Positions 50,486 to 63,871 of a stretch of 64,000 bases of DNA are shown piece after piece. This DNA comes from CBDUXP01 sp965371225 [NCBI: uncultured bacterium] (GTDB taxonomy: Bacteria; Abyssobacteria; SURF-5; CBDUXP01). The stretch covers positions 1 through 64,000 of the forward strand of contig CBDUXP010000003.1 of the NCBI GenBank assembly GCA_965371225.1, read 5' to 3'. The notes under the pieces were generated by a model. The model was given only the letters and a program-made list of their open reading frames with translations, had not been told where the DNA came from and ran no database searches. The position numbers and the translations under genes were made by a program. How positions within the stretch are numbered: position 1 is the stretch's first letter; each line of letters starts with the position of its first letter.

Positions 50486-51517
50486 ATGCCGAATTTTCGC
50501 CTTCCCAGTCGCCGCATGTGGCGAACCGCCGTGCCGCGGGGAGAACGGGTCGCCGGGGCCGTGATCCTGCTTTTGCTCCTTGGCACAGGGGTGGCCATCG
50601 CCGTCAAGGGCCAGGTCTACGATCCGGACCTGTTCGCGCTGAATGATGACCTGCTGGGGGAGGCGCCTTCCCCGTTCGCGCGCGTGCTGCCGGTGTCTTG
50701 GGAGTCACCGACCTGGCAACCGGCGCAGACGGTCGAGCGCTATGGGCCCAATAACCTGTACGAGAAGATCAACGGCCGGGCCGATGAGTATCTGGCCTAC
50801 TCGGTGCAGGGGCTGGAGGTGCAGAGCTTCACCGCGCAGCCGGACGACGGGCGCTTCGTCGACGTCTACCTGTACGACATGGGGACGCCGTTGGACGCGT
50901 TCGGCATTTTCTCGACCGAACGGACGCCGGGGGCCGATCCGGTGACGCTGGGCAAGGAGGGCTACGACGCCCAGGGTTCCATCTTCTTCCATCAGAGTCA
51001 GTTCTACGCGCAAGTGATACCGGCGGAAGCGGATCCGGAATCTCTGGAAGCGGCCCTGACCATTGCGCAGCTCGTGGCGGCGATGTTGCCCGCGGACGCC
51101 GAAGACGCCGCGGGGGATCCAGCGGCGCTGCTCCCGCCGGACGGGTTGGACCCGGAGTCGGTCCAGTACGTGAAGGAAGACGTGCTGGGGCTGGACTTCC
51201 TGCGCAACGGCATCATGGCCACCTATGAGATAGCCGGCGAGAGCCTGAGCGTGTTCCTCATCCGCGAGGAGAGCCCGGACACGGCCGCCGCGGCGCTCGA
51301 CCAGTATGCCGCGTACATTGCGCGCTACGGCACCGTCGTGCAGGACGCGTCCACGGCCCGGGGCCGCTGGATCGTTGGAGATGTCAGCGGGTTCTTCGAC
51401 GTGGTCTTTACGCAGGGCGAGTGGATCGGCGGCGTCTCCGGCGCGATGGCGCGGGAACCCGCCGAGCGTCTGGCCGAGCAGACGCGCGCCGCGTTGCCGG
51501 CGGGGAACGAAGCATGA
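50486..51517 (+). CDS. Exported/membrane-anchored DUF6599-family protein
   Basis: A 343-residue protein with a membrane segment near the N-terminus (VAGAVILLLLLGTGVAIAV). The segment YGPNNLYEKINGRADEYLAY is the mark of the DUF6599 family, followed by FVDVYLYDMGTPLDAFGIFS. The function is unknown. The family is often found beside DUF362 iron-sulfur or redox genes, which fits here. The ATG at 50486 has only a weak ribosome-binding site; another in-frame ATG lies at 50516. Its stop overlaps the next start (ATGA). Confidence 0.75.
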   Translation: MPNFRLPSRRMWRTAVPRGERVAGAVILLLLLGTGVAIAVKGQVYDPDLFALNDDLLGEAPSPFARVLPVSWESPTWQPAQTVERYGPNNLYEKINGRADEYLAYSVQGLEVQSFTAQPDDGRFVDVYLYDMGTPLDAFGIFSTERTPGADPVTLGKEGYDAQGSIFFHQSQFYAQVIPAEADPESLEAALTIAQLVAAMLPADAEDAAGDPAALLPPDGLDPESVQYVKEDVLGLDFLRNGIMATYEIAGESLSVFLIREESPDTAAAALDQYAAYIARYGTVVQDASTARGRWIVGDVSGFFDVVFTQGEWIGGVSGAMAREPAERLAEQTRAALPAGNEA

Positions 51518-52488
51518 CCACGGGGCCCCTGAGCCGGCGCGACTTTCTCCGGCGCGCGGGCATGACCGCCGGTGTGGCAGCCGGCGTGGGTGTCGGCTTC
51601 CCCCTCATTCACAATCGCGAGTCGCGGTTCGCGCCGGCGCCCCCGATCCGGCTGCGCACGTGGGGGGTGGATCGGGCGCTGCTGCGCAATGACCTCGCCA
51701 TCATCCACGGGGAGGACGCGGAGGCGATGGTCCGCGCGGCGTTCGGTGCGCTGGGCGGCATCGAGACGTTCATCAGCAAAGGGGATGTGGTGCTGCTGAA
51801 GCCGAACGTGGCCTTCGATCGGTCGCCGCGGCTGGGCGCGACGACGAACCCCGAGATTTTGAAGGCGGTGGCGCGCTTGGTCCGCGAGGCGGGGGCGGCG
51901 GAAATCCTGGTCGCGGACAACCCGATCAATAGCCCCGAGGGCTGTTTCCACAAGTCGGGGATCGGGCCGGCGGCGCGCGAGGTCGGCGCCCGGCTCGTCC
52001 TGCCGACGCCGGACACGTTCGCGCGCATCGATACCGGGGGAGAGGCCATCGGTGTGTGGCAAGCGATGGCGAAACCCTTGAACCGCGCGGACAAGGTCAT
52101 CGGCGTGGCCCCGTTGAAGGACCACAACCTGTGCGAAGCCTCCATGGCCATGAAGAATTGGTACGGCTTGCTCGGCGGCGCACGGAACCGCTTCCATCAG
52201 GACATCTACACGACGGTGGCGGACCTGAGCGGCATGATCACCCCGACGCTGGTGATCCTGGACGCCACGCGCATTCTGATGAGCAACGGGCCCACGGGCG
52301 GGAGCCTCAACGACGTGAAGCCCGGCGATACGATCATCGCCAGCATCGATCAGGTGGCCTGCGACACGATCGGCTACGGGTTGCTGGAGCGCGATTACAC
52401 GCAGTTGGCCTACCTGCACAAGGCCGAGGCCCGCGGGATCGGCACGACGGACTGGCGCAGTCTGCGCTGGGTGGAACACACGGTCTAG
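51514..52488 (+). CDS. Tat-exported DUF362 protein
   Basis: A 324-residue protein with a twin-arginine signal [10 protein letters not shown] followed by [15 protein letters not shown]. The rest matches DUF362: [31 protein letters not shown] and [16 protein letters not shown]. This copy has no 4Fe-4S cysteine cluster, which some family members carry. The role is unknown, and export through Tat implies a folded, probably cofactor-containing protein. Start codon and previous stop overlap (ATGA), so it is coupled to the DUF6599 gene. Confidence 0.85.
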
Positions 52489-52496
52489 GGCGGCGG

Positions 52497-54077
52497 ATGC
52501 GTCTCACTCACGTCCGCATCGTCGCGCAGGTGTTCTTCTTCAGCCTGTTCGTCTTCTTCTCCGTGGTGACGTCGGAAGCCTTACTGAAAGGCTACCCGGT
52601 CTCTATCATCCTCGAAGCCGATCCGTTGGTGGCCGTCGCCACCGTCCTGACGACGCACTCGTTGTACAAGGACCTGCTGTGGTCGCTGGTCCTCATCGTG
52701 CCGACCCTGCTGCTGGGCCGATTCTTCTGCAACTGGATCTGCCCCTATGGCATTCTGCACCACTTCGTGGGCTGGGTCTTCAACGTCCGCAACACACAGG
52801 AACGCATCGAGAGCAACCGCTACCGGCCGCTGTTCGCGCTCAAGTACTACATCCTGATCTTCATGGCGGTGGCCGCGGTCCTCGGGAGCCTGCAGATCGG
52901 GTTGCTGGACCCCATCGCGATGCTGCACCGCTCGTTCACGTCCGCGGTCCTGCCTATGCTGGCCCTGCCCTCCGGCGCCCTCTACACGGAACCGCCCACG
53001 TATCTCGGCGCGTGGGTGATCGGCTTCATCCTGTTCGCGCTGGTCGCGGCGAACCTGGCGATCCCGCGCTTCTTCTGCCGCGTGCTCTGTCCCCTGGGCG
53101 CGCTGCTCGGCGTACTCAGCCGCTTCAGCCTGTGGCGCATCGAACGGGATCCCGCCAAGTGTACGGACTGCGATTTGTGCCTCACGGCGTGCGAAGGCGC
53201 CTCGGACCCGCATACCCAAGTCCGCATGTCGGAGTGCTTCGTGTGTTTCAATTGCGTGGACGACTGCCCGCACGACGCCATCACCTTCGCGTTCCTGCCC
53301 GACTTCACCCACCAGGTGACCGATCCGCAGGTGCCGCGCCGGCGCGCCGTGCTCGCCACGCTCGCCGGCCTGATGTTCTTCCCCTTCGCGCGCACGGGGG
53401 GCAACACCCGGCGCAACTTCAAGAAGGAAGTGATCCGGCCGCCCGGCTCCCTTGCCGAACCCGAGTTCCTCGCCACGTGCATCAAGTGCGACCAGTGCAT
53501 CCGCGTGTGCCCCGGCAACGTGTTGCAGCCGGCCGGATTCGAGGCGGGCGTGGAGGGGCTCTGGACGCCGATCATGAGCATGCAGTCGGGCTACTGCCAG
53601 CTGAATTGCGTGCTCTGCGGGGAGGTGTGCCCCACGGGGGCGATTCAGGGTATAACATTGGCCGAGAAGCTCGGCTTGGGCGACTTCACCGAGGTGGGAC
53701 CGGTGAAGACCGGCACGGCGTTTTACGACCGCGGCCGGTGTTTGCCCTGGGCGATGGACACGCCCTGCGTGGTGTGCGAAGAGGTGTGTCCGACGTCGCC
53801 CAAAGCGATCTTTGCGCGGGAGGTCCAGAGTACGGACCGCTGGGGAAATGAGATCACGTTAGGGGTGCCCTACGTGGACCCGACGTTGTGCATCGGGTGC
53901 GGCGTCTGCGAGCATGAGTGCCCGGTGGTGGATTTTGCCGCGATTCGGGTGACCGCCATCGGGGAGACGCGGTCCCAGGATCGCCGGTTGATTTTGGAAA
54001 CCATCACCACGGCGCGTGCGACGACAAGCAGTCCCGTACAGGTGTACACGCCGGATACAATGCAACGGACCAGCTAG
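52497..54077 (+). CDS. NapH/MauN-like membrane polyferredoxin
   Basis: A 526-residue protein. The N-terminal part has about five membrane segments and two CxxxCP motifs ([10 protein letters not shown] and [10 protein letters not shown]) characteristic of NapH/NosR-type quinol-linked proteins. The rest carries several 4Fe-4S clusters: [53 protein letters not shown] and [12 protein letters not shown]. It should pass electrons from menaquinol through the membrane to the periplasm, or the reverse. It follows the DUF362 gene by 8 bases, in one operon. Confidence 0.85.
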
Positions 54078-54172
54078 GCAATCGGGGGAGCGACAACGCT
54101 GCGCGTTATACTGCCCCGGGGCTGGCGGGCACCGCCCGGGCCCGCAACTGGCAAGGAAGGATAGTCTTGGCT

Positions 54173-55402
54173 ATGGCTCACAGTTCTGGCGAGAGCACAC
54201 GACGGACATTCATCAAGCAGACGGGGACGGCCGGTGCAGGCCTGGCCCTGGGGGCGCTGGGCGCTGGCGCCGCGCCCGCCGCGGCGGCACGGACCCCGCG
54301 CTTCGGTGCGGAGGCGCCTCTCCAGGTCGCGCAGGCGGCGACGGGGACCATTCCGGCCAAACGGCTGGGCAAGACGGATGTATCCGTGCCCGTGCTGGGC
54401 GCCGGTACGGCGCTGCTGGTCACGCCCATCCTGCTCAATCGGGCCCTGGACGCGGGCATCACCTTCATCGATACCGCGGAAGGGTACGGCAATGGCCGGA
54501 GCGAAACTGCCGTCGGGAAAATTCTCGCGGCGAACGGCAAGCGGGACGACTGCTGGATCGTCACCAAGACCGGCGACCACAAGTGGCAGAACCTCGAGTC
54601 GCACCTGGACGGGTCGCTGAAGCGGCTGCAGACCGACTACGTGGACATCCTGTACCTGCACAACCTGGGCGATCCGGCCAAGCTGGACGACGCCATGGGG
54701 CAGGAGGCGGCGCGGCTGATTGCCACGGGCAAGGTGCGCCACTTCGGCTTCAGCTCCCACCACCGGAACATGCTGGCCACCATGGAGCGGGCCGCGGAGG
54801 TGGACTACATCGAAGCCATCATGTTCAAGTACAACTTCCGCGACTACGACAACGCGGAGTTGAACCGGGTCATGGACGCGTGCCACGCGGCGGATATCGG
54901 TCTCGTGGCCATGAAGACGCAGGGCGGCGCCGTGTCATTCCAGGACCGGGTCGATCCCTTCGCGCAGGCGGGGCTGAACAAGTACCAGGCGGCGCTGAAG
55001 GCGGTGTACGCGGACGAGCGGATTGCTTCCATCGTGTCCGCCATGAAAAACGTCCGGCAGGTGGAACAGAACAGCGCTGCCGCCAAAAACCCGCAGCTGA
55101 CGCTACGGGAGCGGGAGGCGCTGCACGAGTACCGGGTGGCGACGAGCCGGGAATACTGCCGCGGCTGCGGACAGCATTGCATGACGCAGGTGGCCGCGGA
55201 CACGAACGTGCCCGACATCATGCGGCAGTTGATGTACTACGAGAACTACGGCGACCGCCGGCAGGCGCGCACGTTGTTCAACCGCCTCCCGGCCGCGGAA
55301 CGCCGGATCGCGGGCGTGGACTTCCGGGCCGCCGAGGCGGCCTGTCCGTATGGCCTCAAGATCGGCGAGATGATGGAACGCGCCGGGGCGTTGCTCGTCT
55401 AA
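54173..55402 (+). CDS. Tat-exported aldo/keto reductase with C-terminal iron-sulfur-type cysteines
   Basis: A 409-residue protein. Twin-arginine signal STRRTFIKQTGTAGAGLALG, then an AKR barrel: KRLGKTDVSVPVLGAGTALL, FIDTAEGYGNGRSE (catalytic Asp and Tyr), the lysine in IVTKTGDH, and the strand DILYLHNLG. The C-terminus has CRGCGQHC (Cys329, Cys332, Cys336) and a later ACPYG (Cys391), a 4Fe-4S-type set seen in one AKR subgroup. Export suggests an electron partner other than NADPH, perhaps the polyferredoxin next door. TTG at 54167 is an alternative start behind AAGGAAGG. Confidence 0.85.
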   Translation: MAHSSGESTRRTFIKQTGTAGAGLALGALGAGAAPAAAARTPRFGAEAPLQVAQAATGTIPAKRLGKTDVSVPVLGAGTALLVTPILLNRALDAGITFIDTAEGYGNGRSETAVGKILAANGKRDDCWIVTKTGDHKWQNLESHLDGSLKRLQTDYVDILYLHNLGDPAKLDDAMGQEAARLIATGKVRHFGFSSHHRNMLATMERAAEVDYIEAIMFKYNFRDYDNAELNRVMDACHAADIGLVAMKTQGGAVSFQDRVDPFAQAGLNKYQAALKAVYADERIASIVSAMKNVRQVEQNSAAAKNPQLTLREREALHEYRVATSREYCRGCGQHCMTQVAADTNVPDIMRQLMYYENYGDRRQARTLFNRLPAAERRIAGVDFRAAEAACPYGLKIGEMMERAGALLV

Positions 55403-55475: not shown

Positions 55476-56075
55476 CTACGCTGCGAGCGGCTGGATCTGC
55501 ACGGCCTTGGGCGTGGTCGGGCACACCTGTTCGCACAGGCCGCAGCCGACGCAGTGCGTGGCGCTGACCGCCACCGCGCCCGCTTCCGTCAGCCCGATGG
55601 CCGTGCGCCCGATGGGACAGCTCTCGATGCACGCCACGCAGGACTCGCCGTGCGACCGCACGCACTGGCGAAGGTCCACCTGCGCCAGCCCGATGCGAAT
55701 CTGATCCCGGAGCAGCGGCGTAAGGGCGCCGCTGGGACACGCGTCCATGCACGCGAGACTGTCGCACACCACGCACGCCCGTTGGCTGGGGATGATGACC
55801 GGCGTACCGCTGCGATTCGGATCCGGATCGACTAGCGCCTGGATCGCGTCCGCCGGGCACGCGTCCATGCAGTTTCCGCTCCGGTAGCACGTGGTCAGGA
55901 AGGCCGCCTCCGGGAGCGCACCCGGCGGGCGCAATTGGGGCGGGGCGGGCGGCCTGCCGGGGAGCGGCACCGCGTTGTCCACCACGTCCGCGACGGGGCC
56001 CGCCATCTTCAGCAGCGCGTGGCGGAAGAACCCCCGCCGGCCGGAAGGCGAATCGGGTGGGCGCTCGTCAGGCAC
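55476..56075 (-). CDS. NapG/NapF-like ferredoxin with four 4Fe-4S clusters
   Basis: A 199-residue protein with twin-arginine-like start GRRGFFRHALL, no long hydrophobic run, then four cysteine groups: CYRSGNCMDACP, CVVCDSLACMDACP, CVRSHGESCVACIESCP and CVGCGLCEQVCP. The layout is that of NapG/MauM-type periplasmic ferredoxins. It faces the operon at 50.5-55.4 kb across a hairpin and so is probably transcribed separately, but it may be a partner of the NapH-like protein. Confidence 0.82.
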   Translation of the reverse strand: MPDERPPDSPSGRRGFFRHALLKMAGPVADVVDNAVPLPGRPPAPPQLRPPGALPEAAFLTTCYRSGNCMDACPADAIQALVDPDPNRSGTPVIIPSQRACVVCDSLACMDACPSGALTPLLRDQIRIGLAQVDLRQCVRSHGESCVACIESCPIGRTAIGLTEAGAVAVSATHCVGCGLCEQVCPTTPKAVQIQPLAA

Positions 56076-59589: not shown

Positions 59590-60450
59590 ATGGCCACAAC
59601 AGCTTCCATTCCTGCTCGATTGGCGACCTACGGCCGGTTCGTCACCATCGAGCACACCGTGTTCTCGATCCCCGTGATCCTGGCCGGCACCCTCCTCGCG
59701 GCCGGCGGCTGGCCCAGCGGACGGGTCCTGGTGCTGATCGTGTTGGCCGGCACAGGGGCCCGGACCGCGGCCCTCGGCCTCAACCGGATCATCGACCGCC
59801 GGCTGGACGCGCAGAATCCGCGGACGGCGACCCGGGAGCTGGCCACGGGGGAAATCGGCTTTCTGGAGGCGTGGGGGGTGGTCCTGGGCGGTGCTGCGCT
59901 GTACCTCGGGTCGGCCGCGGCGCTGAACCGGTGGTGTTTGCTCCTGTCGCCGCTCCCCCTGGCCGCGTTCGTCGCGTACCCCTATCTCAAGCGATTCACG
60001 GCCCTGGCGCACTACGGCGTGGGCTTCTGCCTGGCCCTGGCGCCGTGCGGCGGCTGGATGGCAGTCCGCGGTTCCTGGGAGGGCGTGGGCCCGGTGCTGC
60101 TGCTCGCCCTGTTCACGTGGGGCTGGGTCGCCGGGTTCGACATCATTTACGCGTGCCTGGACGTGGACTTCGATCGCGAAGCCGGTCTGCACTCTCTGCC
60201 GGCGCGCTTCGCCGCGCCCCGGGCCTTGAGCATTGCGGCAGCTACGCACGCCGTGGCGTTCGCGGCGTTGCTGCTCCTGACGGTCACGACCCTGCAAGGC
60301 CTGCTGTCGTACGTGCTACTTGCGGCCGTGGGCGGACTGCTCGTCATGGAGCATCGGTATGCGCACAACGCGGACCTCGCCTTCTTCAAGATCAACACCG
60401 TCGTGGGCTGCATGGTGTTCGCCCAGGTGTGGGCGGGGCTGGGAGGCTGA
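59590..60450 (+). CDS. mqnP: UbiA-family prenyltransferase of the menaquinone (futalosine) pathway
   Basis: A 286-residue integral membrane protein with about eight segments. The first Asp motif is NRIIDRRLDAQNPRTATREL and the second is YACLDVDFDREAGLHSLPAR, both binding the prenyl diphosphate through Mg. Its place directly before UbiX, UbiD, MqnE and MqnA indicates that it prenylates 1,4-dihydroxy-6-naphthoate (MqnP) rather than 4-hydroxybenzoate. It is the first gene of a run with gaps of 3 bases or overlaps. Confidence 0.85.
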   Translation: MATTASIPARLATYGRFVTIEHTVFSIPVILAGTLLAAGGWPSGRVLVLIVLAGTGARTAALGLNRIIDRRLDAQNPRTATRELATGEIGFLEAWGVVLGGAALYLGSAAALNRWCLLLSPLPLAAFVAYPYLKRFTALAHYGVGFCLALAPCGGWMAVRGSWEGVGPVLLLALFTWGWVAGFDIIYACLDVDFDREAGLHSLPARFAAPRALSIAAATHAVAFAALLLLTVTTLQGLLSYVLLAAVGGLLVMEHRYAHNADLAFFKINTVVGCMVFAQVWAGLGG

Positions 60451-60453
60451 CCG

Positions 60454-61005
60454 GTGCGCGTCGTAGTGGGCGTGACGGGGGCCACGGGCGCGCCGATGCT
60501 GAAGCGCTTTCTCGAACGCTGTCCCGGAGACAAGTACCTCATCATGAGTCAGTGGGGCCGGGCGGTCGTCCACATGGAGCTGGGTCTGCGTCCGGAGGAT
60601 TTGGATCCGCTCGTGGCGGCGCGATTCGCGGACACGGATCTCAGCGCGCCGTTCGCGTCCGGTGGCAACTCTTTCGACGCCTACGTGATCCTGCCGTGCA
60701 CGACGAACACGCTGGCCAAGATTGCGGCGGGCATCGGCGACACGCTCGTGACCCGCTGCGCGCACGTGGCGCTGAAGGAGCGGCGGCGGTTGATCCTCTG
60801 CATCCGGGAGATGCCGTGGACGACCATCGACTGCCGCAACGCGCTGACCCTGTCCGAAGCCGGCGCTATCATCGCCCCCCTGTCGCCACCCATGTACACA
60901 GACCCGGGCACGGTCGAAGATATCGTCGAGGCTTTTACCGATCGGTTGCTGGGCTTGCTGGGGGAACCTCTGGCCGACGGGTGGCGATGCGACGAACTCG
61001 TGTAG
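60454..61005 (+). CDS. ubiX: UbiX-family flavin prenyltransferase
   Basis: A 183-residue flavoprotein starting at GTG: VVVGVTGATGAPMLKRFLE binds FMN, and ILPCTTNTLAKIAAGIGDTL and LCIREMPWTTIDCRNALTL are conserved. It makes prenylated FMN, the cofactor of the UbiD-type enzyme encoded next. In futalosine-pathway organisms the UbiX/UbiD pair removes the carboxyl group of the naphthoate. It overlaps the UbiD gene by 19 bases. Confidence 0.88.
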   Translation: MRVVVGVTGATGAPMLKRFLERCPGDKYLIMSQWGRAVVHMELGLRPEDLDPLVAARFADTDLSAPFASGGNSFDAYVILPCTTNTLAKIAAGIGDTLVTRCAHVALKERRRLILCIREMPWTTIDCRNALTLSEAGAIIAPLSPPMYTDPGTVEDIVEAFTDRLLGLLGEPLADGWRCDELV

Positions 61006-62762
61006 GCGCGGACGATCTCCAGAGTTTCCTCCGCGTCCTGGAGCAGAACGGCGAACTCCAGCGGGTGACGTGCGAGGTGGACCCGGTCCTGGAAATCACG
61101 GGCATCGCGACGCGCACGGTGCGGGAGCAGGGGCCCGCGCTGCTCTTCGAGAACGTGAAGGGCTCCCCGTACCCGTTGGCGATCAACGTCCTGGGCAGCA
61201 TGCGCCGCGTGGAGCTGGCGTTGCGCCGCCACCCCGCAGAGGTGGGGGAGGAGCTGTACAAGTTCGTCGAGCGGGCCAACCCGCCCTCGCTGAAGAACCT
61301 GCTCTCCGTGCGCCGCACGCTATACAAACTGCGGCACATGCGGACACCCCGCGTCAAAGTCGGCCCCGCCACCACCAGCGAAGAGCCCGACCTGACCACG
61401 CTGCCGATCCTGAAAACCTGGCCGGAGGACGGCGGGCGTTTCATCACGCTTGGGCTCGTGCTCACGCGGGACCCGGCGACCGATCGCCGGAACATGGGTA
61501 TCTATCGCATGCAGGTCTTCACGCGGAGCAAAACCGGTATGCACTGGCAGATTCAGAAGGGCGGGGCCTTTCACGCGGACGAGGCCAAACGCCGGAAGCA
61601 GGAGTTGCCGGTCGCCGCCGTCTGTGGCACGGACCCGTGCCTCCTGCTCGCGGCGATTTCTCCCTTGCCCGAAGGGATGGATGAAGTGGCGTTCAGCGGT
61701 TTCCTGCGGGGCAAGCCCACGCCGGTCCGCCGCATCGGTCCCCACGGCATCGCGGTCCCGGCCAACGCGGAATTCATCCTGGAGGGGAGCGTGGACCCGA
61801 ACGAGCTGCGCATGGAGGGCCCGTTCGGCGACCACTTCGGCCATTACTCGCTCGCCGCACCCTATCCGGTGTTCAACATCCACGCGATACACCGCCGGCC
61901 CGAGCCGGTGTACCAGGCGACCGTCGTGGGGAAACCGCCACAGGAAGACCGGTACCTGGGCGACGCCGTGAATCACATCTTTCTGCCGCTGCTCAAGGTG
62001 ATCCAGCCGGAGATTGCGGACCTCTGGGCGTACTACGAGGCGGGATTCCACAACCTGCTGGTGGTCTCCGTAAAGGAGCGGTATGCCCGCGAGGGGTTCA
62101 AGACGGCGCTGAAGGTGCTTGGGGAGGGCCAACTGGCGCTCAGCAAGTGCGTCATCATTGTGCCGGAGGGCGTCGACCCACGCGACTGGTCCGCCGTGCT
62201 GCGGTGCGTGCACCAGCGGTGCGATCCCCAGTCGGACATCCACGTGATTCCCACGGCGGTGGTCGACACGCTGGATTTCACGAGCCGCACGGCGGAAGTG
62301 GGGGGGAAGCTGATCTGGTACGCGGCTGGACCGCCCGGGGAGAACCTGCGAGAGGTGCCCGAAGAGTTGAATCCCCGGACCGTGGACGACCGCGTGAGCG
62401 AAGCGCGGTTGTGGGGAGGGACGTACCTGGTCGTGAAGGTACAGGATTCCGCCGCCGCCCCGGACATCCTGATGCGGCTTGTGTCAGAGTATAGGGACGT
62501 CGGCCTCACGGCGATTGCCGCGGTGAGCGGGGATGTCACCTTGGATGATCGGGAGTCCGTCCTGTGGGGCATCTACACGCGGTTCGATCCGGCGCGCGAC
62601 TGCGTGGTGGCCGGCGCGCGCGCGGACGGGCCGGTCGCCCGTTGGGAGGGGCCTCTGGGCATCGATGCCACGTGGAAACCGGGATACCCGAAGGCGCTGG
62701 AGCTGCCGCGGGATATTGAGGATACGGTCACGCAACGATGGTCGCAGTACTTGACACCGTAG
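60987..62762 (+). CDS. ubiD: UbiD-family decarboxylase (prenylated-FMN-dependent)
   Basis: A 591-residue protein. Family segments: LEQNGELQRVTCEVDPVLEI, MGIYRMQVFTRSKTGMHWQ, then EGPFGDHFGHYSL (active-site loop with Glu and Asp) and SGDVTLDDRESVLWGIYTRF. It would decarboxylate the prenylated naphthoate in menaquinone synthesis (the step called MqnL in the futalosine literature). The ATG at 60987 lies inside the UbiX gene; the stop codon overlaps the MqnE start by 25 bases. Confidence 0.87.
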   Translation: MRRTRVGADDLQSFLRVLEQNGELQRVTCEVDPVLEITGIATRTVREQGPALLFENVKGSPYPLAINVLGSMRRVELALRRHPAEVGEELYKFVERANPPSLKNLLSVRRTLYKLRHMRTPRVKVGPATTSEEPDLTTLPILKTWPEDGGRFITLGLVLTRDPATDRRNMGIYRMQVFTRSKTGMHWQIQKGGAFHADEAKRRKQELPVAAVCGTDPCLLLAAISPLPEGMDEVAFSGFLRGKPTPVRRIGPHGIAVPANAEFILEGSVDPNELRMEGPFGDHFGHYSLAAPYPVFNIHAIHRRPEPVYQATVVGKPPQEDRYLGDAVNHIFLPLLKVIQPEIADLWAYYEAGFHNLLVVSVKERYAREGFKTALKVLGEGQLALSKCVIIVPEGVDPRDWSAVLRCVHQRCDPQSDIHVIPTAVVDTLDFTSRTAEVGGKLIWYAAGPPGENLREVPEELNPRTVDDRVSEARLWGGTYLVVKVQDSAAAPDILMRLVSEYRDVGLTAIAAVSGDVTLDDRESVLWGIYTRFDPARDCVVAGARADGPVARWEGPLGIDATWKPGYPKALELPRDIEDTVTQRWSQYLTP

Positions 62763-63871
62763 AGTTGGAGCAGTGTCGCGACGCGCGCCTGCCGGCCATC
62801 TGGGCCAAGGTGCAGGCGGGCGAGCGGCTCGGGCGCGAGGACGGGGTCGCCCTGTTCGAGACGGAGGATCTCTTGACGCTCGGCCGGATGGCCAACGCGG
62901 TCAAGGAACGCCTGAGCGGCGACGACGTGTATTTCGTCGTGAACCGCCAACTGAACCCGACGAATAAGTGCGCGCTCAGTTGCAAGTTCTGCGATTACGC
63001 CAAGACCAACGCGGACAAAGACGGTTACGAGATGACGCGCGAAGAGATCCTCGCGCACTGCGGGCCCGACGTGAGCGAGGTCCACATTGTCAGCGGCCTG
63101 CATCCGAAGTGGAAGTACGAGCAGTACGTCGACATCGTGCGCGCGATTCGCGCGCACAACCCCACCATTCAGATCAAGGCCTGGACGGCGGTGGAGATCG
63201 ATTTTTTTGCGCGGCTGGCGCGGAAGAGCACCCGGACCGTGCTCGAGGAGATGCGCGAGGTCGGGATGCAGACCATGCCCGGCGGCGGTTGCGAAATATT
63301 CAGCAAGCGTGTGAAGAAAGCGCTCTTCAACGCGAAGATCGGGGAGAAGCCCTGGCTCCAGGTGCATCGTGAGGCGCACGAGCTGGGCATCAAGACGAAC
63401 TGCACGATGCTCTACGGCCACATCGAGACGTATGCGGAGCGGGTGGACCACATCCTGAAGCTGCGTGACCTGGAAGACGAGGCGCCGGGCTTCCTGGCGT
63501 TCATTCCCCTGGCGTACCAGATTGGCTATACCAAGCTGGTGGACCGCCAGGCCTCCGCGATCGAGGATCTGAAGACCGTGGCGGTGTCGCGCTTGCTCTT
63601 CGACAACATCCCGCACGTCAAGGCGTATTGGGTCATGCTGGGGGAGGCGACCGCCACGATCGCGCTCAACTTCGGCGCGAGCGATATGGATGGCACCATT
63701 GGCCGCGAACGTATCGCCCACGCGGCCCTCGCGGACTCGCCGGACGGCTTGGAGCGGGAGCACATGACGCGGCTCATCCGCGACGCGCGCCGCCGGCCCG
63801 TCGAGCGCGACGCCCTGTACAACATTGTCCGGACGTACGAACGAACGGATCCCCGTGGCCGTCGTCGGTAG
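62738..63871 (+). CDS. mqnE: Aminofutalosine synthase, radical SAM (MqnE)
   Basis: A 377-residue radical SAM enzyme. The cluster motif is CALSCKFCDYAK; other MqnE features are VSEVHIVSGLHPKWKYEQYV, IKAWTAVEIDFF and MPGGGCEIFSKRV. It makes aminofutalosine from 3-[(1-carboxyvinyl)oxy]benzoate and SAM, the first committed ring step after MqnA. Its last bases overlap the MqnA start by 17. Confidence 0.9.
   Translation: MVAVLDTVELEQCRDARLPAIWAKVQAGERLGREDGVALFETEDLLTLGRMANAVKERLSGDDVYFVVNRQLNPTNKCALSCKFCDYAKTNADKDGYEMTREEILAHCGPDVSEVHIVSGLHPKWKYEQYVDIVRAIRAHNPTIQIKAWTAVEIDFFARLARKSTRTVLEEMREVGMQTMPGGGCEIFSKRVKKALFNAKIGEKPWLQVHREAHELGIKTNCTMLYGHIETYAERVDHILKLRDLEDEAPGFLAFIPLAYQIGYTKLVDRQASAIEDLKTVAVSRLLFDNIPHVKAYWVMLGEATATIALNFGASDMDGTIGRERIAHAALADSPDGLEREHMTRLIRDARRRPVERDALYNIVRTYERTDPRGRRR

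What the first reader, a model, noticed from the sequence alone, without database searches (positions are those of the whole stretch)
50486..55402. Periplasmic redox operon DUF6599 - Tat-DUF362 - NapH-like polyferredoxin - Tat aldo/keto reductase
Four consecutive genes, the first two overlapping and the third 8 bases on, encode two families of unknown function, a membrane polyferredoxin with two CxxxCP motifs and about six clusters, and an exported AKR. Quinol could feed the NapH-like protein, whose clusters pass electrons to the exported reductase or DUF362. An exported AKR without periplasmic NADPH would need such a donor. I know of no characterised system with this composition.
Basis: partly seen in the sequence, partly recalled or inferred. 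Interest (0 to 1): 0.75.

Follow-up and report, generated by a model that had tools for sequence, protein, structure and literature searches.

The report
Exported LarA-like enzyme with quinone-linked wiring
A widely conserved bacterial gene set appears to send a relative of the nickel enzyme lactate racemase out of the cytoplasm and wire it to the respiratory chain, and it may be one of the missing users of a rare nickel cofactor.

Summary
Gene 3 is a NapH-NapG fusion of a published Sec/Tat-inserted polyferredoxin type. The main new point is gene 2. Its model has the LarA (lactate racemase) cofactor-domain fold (Z 17.4; best unrelated 5.5); its invariant His204 and Lys214 align with LarA His174 and Lys184, the lysine that holds the nickel-pincer nucleotide (NPN). 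LarC is in 48 of 50 operon genomes searched, and in 17 of the 18 that lack LarA. In some Verrucomicrobiota lar genes sit beside, or in line with, the DUF362-polyferredoxin pair. Best reading: a Tat-exported NPN enzyme linked to the quinone pool. Against it: sequence-profile similarity to LarA is marginal, the LarA C-terminal domain is absent, and 11 sampled genomes with a strong DUF362 match lack LarC. NPN binding and net redox chemistry are inferred, not shown.

The parts
50486..51517 (+). DUF6599 protein: one N-terminal membrane helix (about 19-46) and two predicted Mog1/PsbP-like domains, presumably outside the cytoplasm
   Evidence: PF20244; hydropathy; AF2 pLDDT 92; best fold matches 1vr8 Z 12.0 over 120 residues and PknH/TiME ectodomains Z about 10; the Mog1/PsbP name for the fold is partly recalled
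51514..52488 (+). Tat-type DUF362 protein with the LarA cofactor-domain fold; His204, Lys214 and His228 are the candidate NPN-site residues
   Evidence: PF04015, TAT model, fold match Z 17.4 to LarA-family structures, conservation
52497..54077 (+). NapH-NapG fusion polyferredoxin with 28 conserved Cys and an internal twin-arginine stretch before the NapG half
   Evidence: NCBIfam NapH on 5-266 and NapG on 288-487, both far below their equivalog cut-offs; same architecture as the polytopic polyferredoxin of PMC5449189
54173..55402 (+). Tat-type aldo/keto reductase with tetrad D100 Y105 K132 H163 and C-terminal Cys 329, 332, 336 and 391
   Evidence: PF00248; alignment of 41 AKRs
55476..56075 (-). 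Convergent NapG-like ferredoxin with a twin-arginine N-terminus (read by eye); possible extra electron carrier
   Evidence: NapG/MauM models 103.6 and 96.5 bits, below cut-off; near the operon in L001, L002 and L003 of 80 loci

Best explanation
The unit is an envelope redox system built around a LarA-like enzyme. The DUF362 protein folds in the cytoplasm, where LarB, LarE and LarC would make NPN and it would be fixed to Lys214 with nickel held by His228; the folded protein is then exported by Tat. The NapH-NapG polyferredoxin is inserted by Sec and Tat together, so that its NapG half lies outside and joins DUF362 to the (mena)quinone pool. NPN would take a hydride from, or give one to, a hydroxy/carbonyl compound (His204 as acid/base), and the polyferredoxin would carry the electrons to or from quinone, making the hidden redox step of LarA a net redox reaction. 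The exported AKR would work on the same or the next metabolite; DUF6599 would be a membrane-anchored scaffold. Shown by computation: gene set, fold, residue conservation, gene linkage, genome co-occurrence. Inferred: NPN binding (my estimate 0.6), electron flow between DUF362 and the polyferredoxin (0.55), direction and substrate (unknown), roles of AKR and DUF6599 (weak).
For: Fold: the 12 best-matching PDB entries are LarA-type (11 lactate/malate racemase or LarA-like entries and 4nar), Z 15.2-17.4; next 5.5. Sequence: one of two LarA homologues scanned scores 23.3 bits, E 7.5e-5, with Pfam DUF362 (cut-off 24); hhalign of 75 DUF362s against 18 LarA homologues gives P 0.0079 and puts His204/Lys214 on LarA His/Lys. 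His204 and Lys214: 75 of 75; His228: 63 of 75, the other 12 having His one column earlier. LarA roles of K184, His200 and His174: PMC11770544 passages. Genomes (50 of the 80 loci): LarC in 48 of 50, or 43 of 45 without the five whose lar genes I had already seen; 17 of 18 LarA-less ones have LarC (14 of 15 likewise), 14 of them LarB, LarC and LarE. DUF362 against LarC: odds ratio 10.6 in 193 Verrucomicrobiota, 10.7 in 179 Acidobacteriota. Linkage: lar genes in 5 of 80 loci, at 230, 285, 375, 1166 and 6808 bases from gene 3; same-strand DUF362-PFD-larE-larB-larC in L102 and DUF362-PFD-larB-larC in L101.
Against: The narrow DUF362 profile shows no similarity to LarA; the wider one has a probability of only 5%. 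No LarA_C domain and no Lar_N hit in gene 2. The position that I place by hand at LarA His108 is Asn in 62 of 75. DUF362 without LarC: 15 of 103 Verrucomicrobiota and 7 of 96 Acidobacteriota genomes; of 11 such genomes with strong DUF362 matches 10 also lack LarB, and four of those ten (L104, L106, L109, L110) keep the His/Lys/His residues and the polyferredoxin neighbour. LarA itself lacks LarC at similar rates (18 of 84, 8 of 92). With stricter DUF362 cut-offs the odds ratios fall (7.5 and 6.5), and for the strongest matches alone the link is not significant (5 of 5, p 0.16; 10 of 10, p 0.07). Fisher tests ignore kinship. Of the control genomes, Bacteroides ihuae has DUF362 without LarC. The window holds no lar genes and its genome is not held.
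Confidence: 0.45

Rival explanations
1. DUF362 carries NPN but only isomerises; the polyferredoxin uses quinol to keep the labile cofactor reduced or to reactivate it in the envelope, as NosR-type proteins are thought to do for their enzyme (recalled).
For: Same linkage and co-occurrence data; LarA chemistry is an isomerisation (PMC11770544 passages); cofactor-loaded LarA homologues are called labile (PMC11796402 passages).
Against: Four clusters in the half that should lie outside, and 28 conserved Cys, suggest a catalytic wire; one of the two catalytic His positions of LarA racemases is mostly Asn here by my placement.
Confidence: 0.18
2. DUF362 has the LarA fold but uses another cofactor or none; the link with larBCE reflects shared ancestry and life style.
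For: DUF362 with the same residues in genomes without LarC and LarB; marginal sequence-profile similarity to LarA.
Against: Direct larE-larB-larC linkage, larBCE sets without LarA in 14 operon genomes, and a 10-residue His-Lys spacing as in LarA.
Confidence: 0.22
3. One reading: quinol electrons go through the polyferredoxin to the exported AKR, DUF362 being auxiliary.
For: RRx[FL] start in 38 of 40 AKRs and same strand in 24 of 24 near cases; CxxC and the later Cys in 37 of 41.
Against: No AKR nearby in 17 of 41 assessable loci; an AKR hit in 1 of 12 second-subfamily DUF362 regions; AKR tetrad intact.
Confidence: 0.12

Closest known systems
LarA lactate racemase superfamily (Lar_N/LarA_C, NPN enzymes)
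   Same: Cofactor-domain fold; His-(10)-Lys spacing; a following His; linkage and co-occurrence with larB/C/E
   Different: Tat-type signal, one domain only, marginal sequence similarity, no conserved His at the position placed at His108, constant polyferredoxin partner
LarA-like enzymes with one catalytic histidine (LarASp, LarABw; PMC12611868, abstract and sections 2.1 and 2.5 read)
   Same: Also have Asn in place of one of the two catalytic His; structures 9q3j/9q3k match the model at Z 15.7/15.2
   Different: There the His174 position is Asn; here the His174 equivalent is invariant and the other site (placed by hand) is mostly Asn
Polytopic polyferredoxin of delta proteobacterium MLMS-1 (Tooke et al. 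2017, PMC5449189; passages and section 9 read)
   Same: NapH-NapG fusion, internal twin-arginine before the last helix, seven clusters' worth of Cys
   Different: No partner enzyme is named in what I read; here it is tied to DUF362
NapGH quinol dehydrogenase of periplasmic nitrate reduction
   Same: Domain homology of both halves
   Different: Scores far below the equivalog cut-offs (91 against 269 and 81 against 234 bits); nitrate reductase genes were not searched for
Glucose-fructose oxidoreductase (recalled)
   Same: Precedent for a Tat-exported oxidoreductase that leaves with its nucleotide cofactor bound
   Different: Different fold family; no quinone wiring

Membership tests
LarA superfamily (NPN enzymes) | LarA cofactor-domain fold | tested here: met
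   Z 17.4, rmsd 3.0, 207 residues, model 65-295 on chain 34-265 of 6d6z; Foldseek E 1.2e-5 but TM-score only 0.44 for its best hit
LarA superfamily (NPN enzymes) | Lysine for NPN (K184) and catalytic His (H174) | tested here: met
   Lys214 and His204, 75 of 75; in register in the hhalign alignment, which has low probability
LarA superfamily (NPN enzymes) | Nickel ligand His200 | tested here: inconclusive
   His228 or its one-column shift conserved (63 + 12 of 75) but 13-14 instead of 16 residues after the Lys; placed by reading, not by a tool alignment
LarA superfamily (NPN enzymes) | Second catalytic His (H108) and phosphate Arg75 | tested here: inconclusive
   By hand placement: Asn136 in 62 of 75, His in 10; no invariant Arg at the Arg75 loop, Lys96 and Asn98 invariant instead
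LarA superfamily (NPN enzymes) | Lar_N and LarA_C domains by Pfam | tested here: not met
   Gene 2 hits only DUF362; the reverse hit of one LarA homologue to DUF362 is just under cut-off
LarA superfamily (NPN enzymes) | Bound NPN | not testable with these tools
   needs protein
DUF362 (PF04015, clan CL0471) | Pfam match over cut-off | tested here: met
   149.9 bits, cut-off 24; clan shared with LarA according to PMC11770544
Dual Sec/Tat polytopic polyferredoxin | NapH-NapG fusion with twin arginine before the last helix | tested here: met
   Domains; RR in 79 of 80, RRx[hydrophobic] in 78 of 80
Dual Sec/Tat polytopic polyferredoxin | Tat-dependent export of the C-terminal half | not testable with these tools
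   shown by others with reporter fusions for the MLMS-1 protein (PMC5449189)
Aldo/keto reductase | Pfam match and D-Y-K-H tetrad | tested here: met
   117.8 bits; 41 of 41 rows
Aldo/keto reductase | Use of NAD(P)H | not testable with these tools
   needs assay

The most novel reading that the evidence does not exclude
Tat-exported DUF362 proteins are one of the unknown NPN-binding proteins implied by larBCE genomes without larA, and with the NapH-NapG polyferredoxin they form the first NPN-dependent net redox enzyme, coupled to the quinone pool outside the cytoplasm.
Probability: 0.38. Interest if true: 0.93.

Novelty: new variant of a known kind. Interest (0 to 1): 0.8.

Why it matters
PMC11796402 (passages read) states that about 15% of the genomes analysed have larB, larE and larC but no larA, and suggests NPN-binding proteins that are not LarA-like. 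DUF362 is a concrete candidate: right fold, matching lysine and histidine, gene linkage and co-occurrence. If true, it assigns a cofactor to a large family of unknown function, puts NPN into envelope respiration, and gives a partner to the Sec/Tat polyferredoxins. The test is simple: co-express DUF362 with larBCE and look for nickel and the NPN mass.

Tried and rejected
Profile comparison of the narrow DUF362 alignment A1 with LarA alignment A3: no signal. PDB sequence search with A1: no hit up to E 10. DUF6599 fold search: Foldseek gave nothing under E 0.001; VIA gave small domains (1vr8, PknH, TiME, PsbP), so only a fold hint. Literature: 'DUF6599' 0 papers. 'DUF362' as a word beginning gave 9 papers, but as a whole word only 3 (PMC5742341, PMC7955657, PMC11770544); passages read in all three; a fourth that I opened proved to be about DUF3623. 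The three give DUF362 no cofactor beyond its association with iron-sulfur domains and its clan with LarA. 'nickel-pincer nucleotide' since 2025: 4 papers, 3 listed. These searches cover only the held open-access library. AKR as centre of the system: rejected for weak linkage. Operon-type or strongest DUF362 matches against LarC alone are not significant in the phylum samples (5 of 5, p 0.16; 10 of 10, p 0.07), because LarC is common there; the strong odds ratios rest on all DUF362 types.

Rows dropped: of 318 relatives the tool kept the best 80. Of these 80 loci 50 were given to the genome searches, chosen by hand for spread over phyla, before any LarC count by genome but including the five loci with lar genes already seen. 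Fifteen weak partial Lar_N hits (about 20-23 bits) were not counted as LarA in Verrucomicrobiota (99 became 84); in Acidobacteriota all 92 were kept. Loci with too little flank were left out of the linkage counts. L007 was left out of the polyferredoxin alignment for length. The samples include the centre genomes G018 and G050, which were known to have the operon. L101, L102 and L116 were fetched because larC and DUF362 hits lay on one contig.
Full report
Observation. The four genes are present as described. Gene 1 (50486-51517) is DUF6599, gene 2 (51514-52488) DUF362 with a Tat signal, gene 3 (52497-54077) a NapH/NapG-like protein and gene 4 (54173-55402) an aldo/keto reductase. Genes 1 and 2 overlap by 4 bases, gene 3 follows after 8, gene 4 after 95. 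A fifth gene, convergent at 55476-56075, encodes a NapG-like ferredoxin with a twin-arginine start. No whole genome is held for the window.

Conservation. A scan of species genomes with gene 3 gave 318 relatives, of which the tool kept 80 loci. Their record titles include Verrucomicrobia, Planctomycetes, Armatimonadetes, Acidobacteria, Gemmatimonadetes, Deltaproteobacteria and Myxococcales, Latescibacterota, Hydrogenedentota, Rokubacteria and Poribacteria, each with at least one locus that has DUF362 in place. DUF362 lies directly upstream in 60 of the 65 loci with at least 1.5 kb of upstream sequence, DUF6599 in 52 of 58 with at least 3 kb, an AKR within 5 kb in 24 of 41 with enough flank (11 upstream, 13 downstream, all 24 on the same strand). 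Clustering of ORFs around the loci, judged by eye, showed no other neighbour family of like frequency; most further large clusters looked like shadow ORFs of these genes. The separate NapG ferredoxin is near in L001, L002 and L003 only.

Gene 3. NCBIfam finds NapH on residues 5-266 and NapG on 288-487, well under the equivalog cut-offs. In an alignment of 80 proteins (the window and 79 relatives) 27 of its 28 Cys are kept in 80 of 80 and one in 79 of 80; they make two CxxxCP motifs and six four-Cys groups. A twin-arginine followed by a hydrophobic stretch sits between the two halves (RR in 79 of 80). This is the architecture of the polytopic polyferredoxin that Tooke et al. (PMC5449189; passages and section 9 read) describe as a NapH-NapG fusion with seven predicted clusters, four of them outside, inserted by Sec and Tat. 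So the NapG half is most likely outside the cytoplasm.

Gene 2. The AlphaFold model built on 50 sequences is confident (pLDDT 91.8). Foldseek's 13 PDB hits with E under 0.001 are all LarA or malate racemase type (TM-scores by query length 0.36-0.48). VIA-align gives Z 15.2-17.4 for the 12 best entries, all LarA-type (including 4nar, which a LarA profile also finds), and 5.5 for the next. The aligned part is LarA up to about residue 270, the cofactor domain; the LarA C-terminal domain has no counterpart. PMC11770544 (passages read) puts DUF362 and LarA in the same Pfam clan, used DUF362 only as an outgroup, and gives the LarA roles: K184 holds NPN, His200 binds nickel, R75 the phosphate, His108 and His174 are acid/base. 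In 75 DUF362 proteins His204 and Lys214 are invariant, ten residues apart as in LarA; a further His follows 14 (or 13) residues after the Lys, against 16 in LarA. Sequence support is weak but in register: hhalign P 0.0079 with a probability of 5%; one of two LarA homologues scanned reaches 23.3 bits against Pfam DUF362, cut-off 24; the narrower alignment gave no signal. The position that I place at LarA His108 is Asn in 62 of 75. PMC12611868 (abstract and sections 2.1 and 2.5 read) describes LarA-like enzymes with Asn in place of the other His and Lys in place of the phosphate Arg. RRx[FLIVM] occurs near the start of 48 of 59 related DUF362s; for 11 it was not seen with the starts that my script chose.

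Link to the cofactor. In 5 of 80 loci (L023, L027, L030, L034, L045) larB, larC and larE lie near the operon (larE as a homologous ORF; larB and larC), the nearest lar gene being 375, 285, 1166, 230 and 6808 bases from gene 3. In two further Verrucomicrobiota, picked because larC and DUF362 hits were close, the pair is in line with lar genes: DUF362-polyferredoxin-larE-larB-larC in L102 and DUF362-polyferredoxin-larB-larC in L101. These belong to a second Tat-DUF362 subfamily, 26-30% identical to the window protein. Of the 16 DUF362 regions fetched, 16 have a NapHG-like neighbour (12 second-subfamily, 4 first; the one in L116 only 53 bits).

Genome co-occurrence. Of 50 operon genomes (50 of the 80 loci) 48 have LarC, 46 LarB and 45 LarE over cut-off, 32 LarA. 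Of the 18 without LarA 17 have LarC, 14 have all three biosynthesis genes, and 9 have LarC with exactly one DUF362 gene. Without the five genomes whose lar genes I had already seen, LarC is in 43 of 45, and in 14 of 15 LarA-less ones. In 193 Verrucomicrobiota genomes: DUF362 and LarC 88, DUF362 only 15, LarC only 32, neither 58 (odds ratio 10.6, p 6e-13); in the 109 LarA-less ones 39, 6, 15, 49 (odds ratio 21). LarA against LarC there: 3.7. In 179 Acidobacteriota: 89, 7, 45, 38 (10.7, p 3e-9); in the 87 LarA-less ones 35, 6, 15, 31 (12.1); LarA against LarC 7.8. With stricter DUF362 cut-offs the ratios are lower: 7.5 overall and 14.5 in LarA-less Verrucomicrobiota (at least 150 bits), 6.5 and 5.1 in Acidobacteriota (E up to 1e-25); for the strongest matches alone 5 of 5 and 10 of 10 have LarC, which is not significant. 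Kinship is not corrected for. Many LarC genomes without LarA have no DUF362 by this profile (15 of 54 and 15 of 50), so other NPN users must exist too. Among 14 control genomes LarC is in 6, LarA in 2, DUF362 in 5; Synechococcus elongatus and Haloferax volcanii have LarC and DUF362 without LarA, whereas Corynebacterium glutamicum and Methanocaldococcus jannaschii have LarC with neither, and Bacteroides ihuae DUF362 without LarC. PMC8305020 (passages read) notes larBCE in Haloferax volcanii and a possible enzyme with the pincer cofactor.

Contrary results. Eleven genomes with strong DUF362 matches lack LarC and ten of these also lack LarB. Three of them (L104, L106, L110) have DUF362s 60-63% alike, so they may be one loss, but L109 is separate; these four keep the key residues and the polyferredoxin neighbour. 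LarA itself shows the same kind of exception (18 of 84 and 8 of 92), so this does not separate the two, but larBCE dependence is not universal.

Genes 1 and 4. DUF6599 models as a membrane helix plus two small domains of a Mog1/PsbP-like kind; its role is a guess. The AKR has the catalytic tetrad in 41 of 41 aligned proteins and the C-terminal Cys in 37 of 41, so it probably still uses a nicotinamide nucleotide, perhaps carried out with it as in glucose-fructose oxidoreductase (recalled).

Mechanism. The simplest reading is a Tat-exported NPN enzyme wired to quinone through a NapHG-type polyferredoxin. Direction is open: NapGH is a quinol dehydrogenase (PMC5449189), but oxidation of a hydroxy compound by quinone is the easier direction in energy terms (general knowledge). 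DUF362 is often found with iron-sulfur domains in other proteins (PMC5742341, PMC7955657; passages), which fits a redox role. Genes that look like futalosine-type menaquinone synthesis lie downstream in the window (pathway assignment recalled).

Verdict. I found no description of the unit in the literature searched here; it is made of known parts, with a directly testable and unusual prediction.

Noticed in passing
window 59590-63871: UbiA prenyltransferase, flavoprotein of UbiX type, UbiD and a CofH/MqnC-type radical SAM protein in a row: looks like part of a futalosine menaquinone gene cluster.
   Followed up: partly
window 55476-56075 (-): NapG-like ferredoxin convergent with the AKR; near the operon only in the closest relatives L001-L003.
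   Followed up: partly
G094:C67:168375-168521, G112:C4:95752-95898 and similar: Proteins of about 380 aa match Lar_N only over profile 144-194 at 20-23 bits, probably the His174-Lys184 region: perhaps another family with the same site.
   Followed up: no
Verrucomicrobiota and Acidobacteriota samples: LarA-type genes occur without LarC in 18 of 84 and 8 of 92 genomes; how these get NPN is unclear.
   Followed up: no
L014, L022, L051: Two tandem AKRs upstream of DUF6599 instead of one.
   Followed up: no
L029, 11818-13470 and L046, 12626-14032: Planctomycete loci without a near AKR have other genes downstream, the L046 one with a twin-arginine motif near its N-terminus; possible alternative partners.
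   Followed up: no
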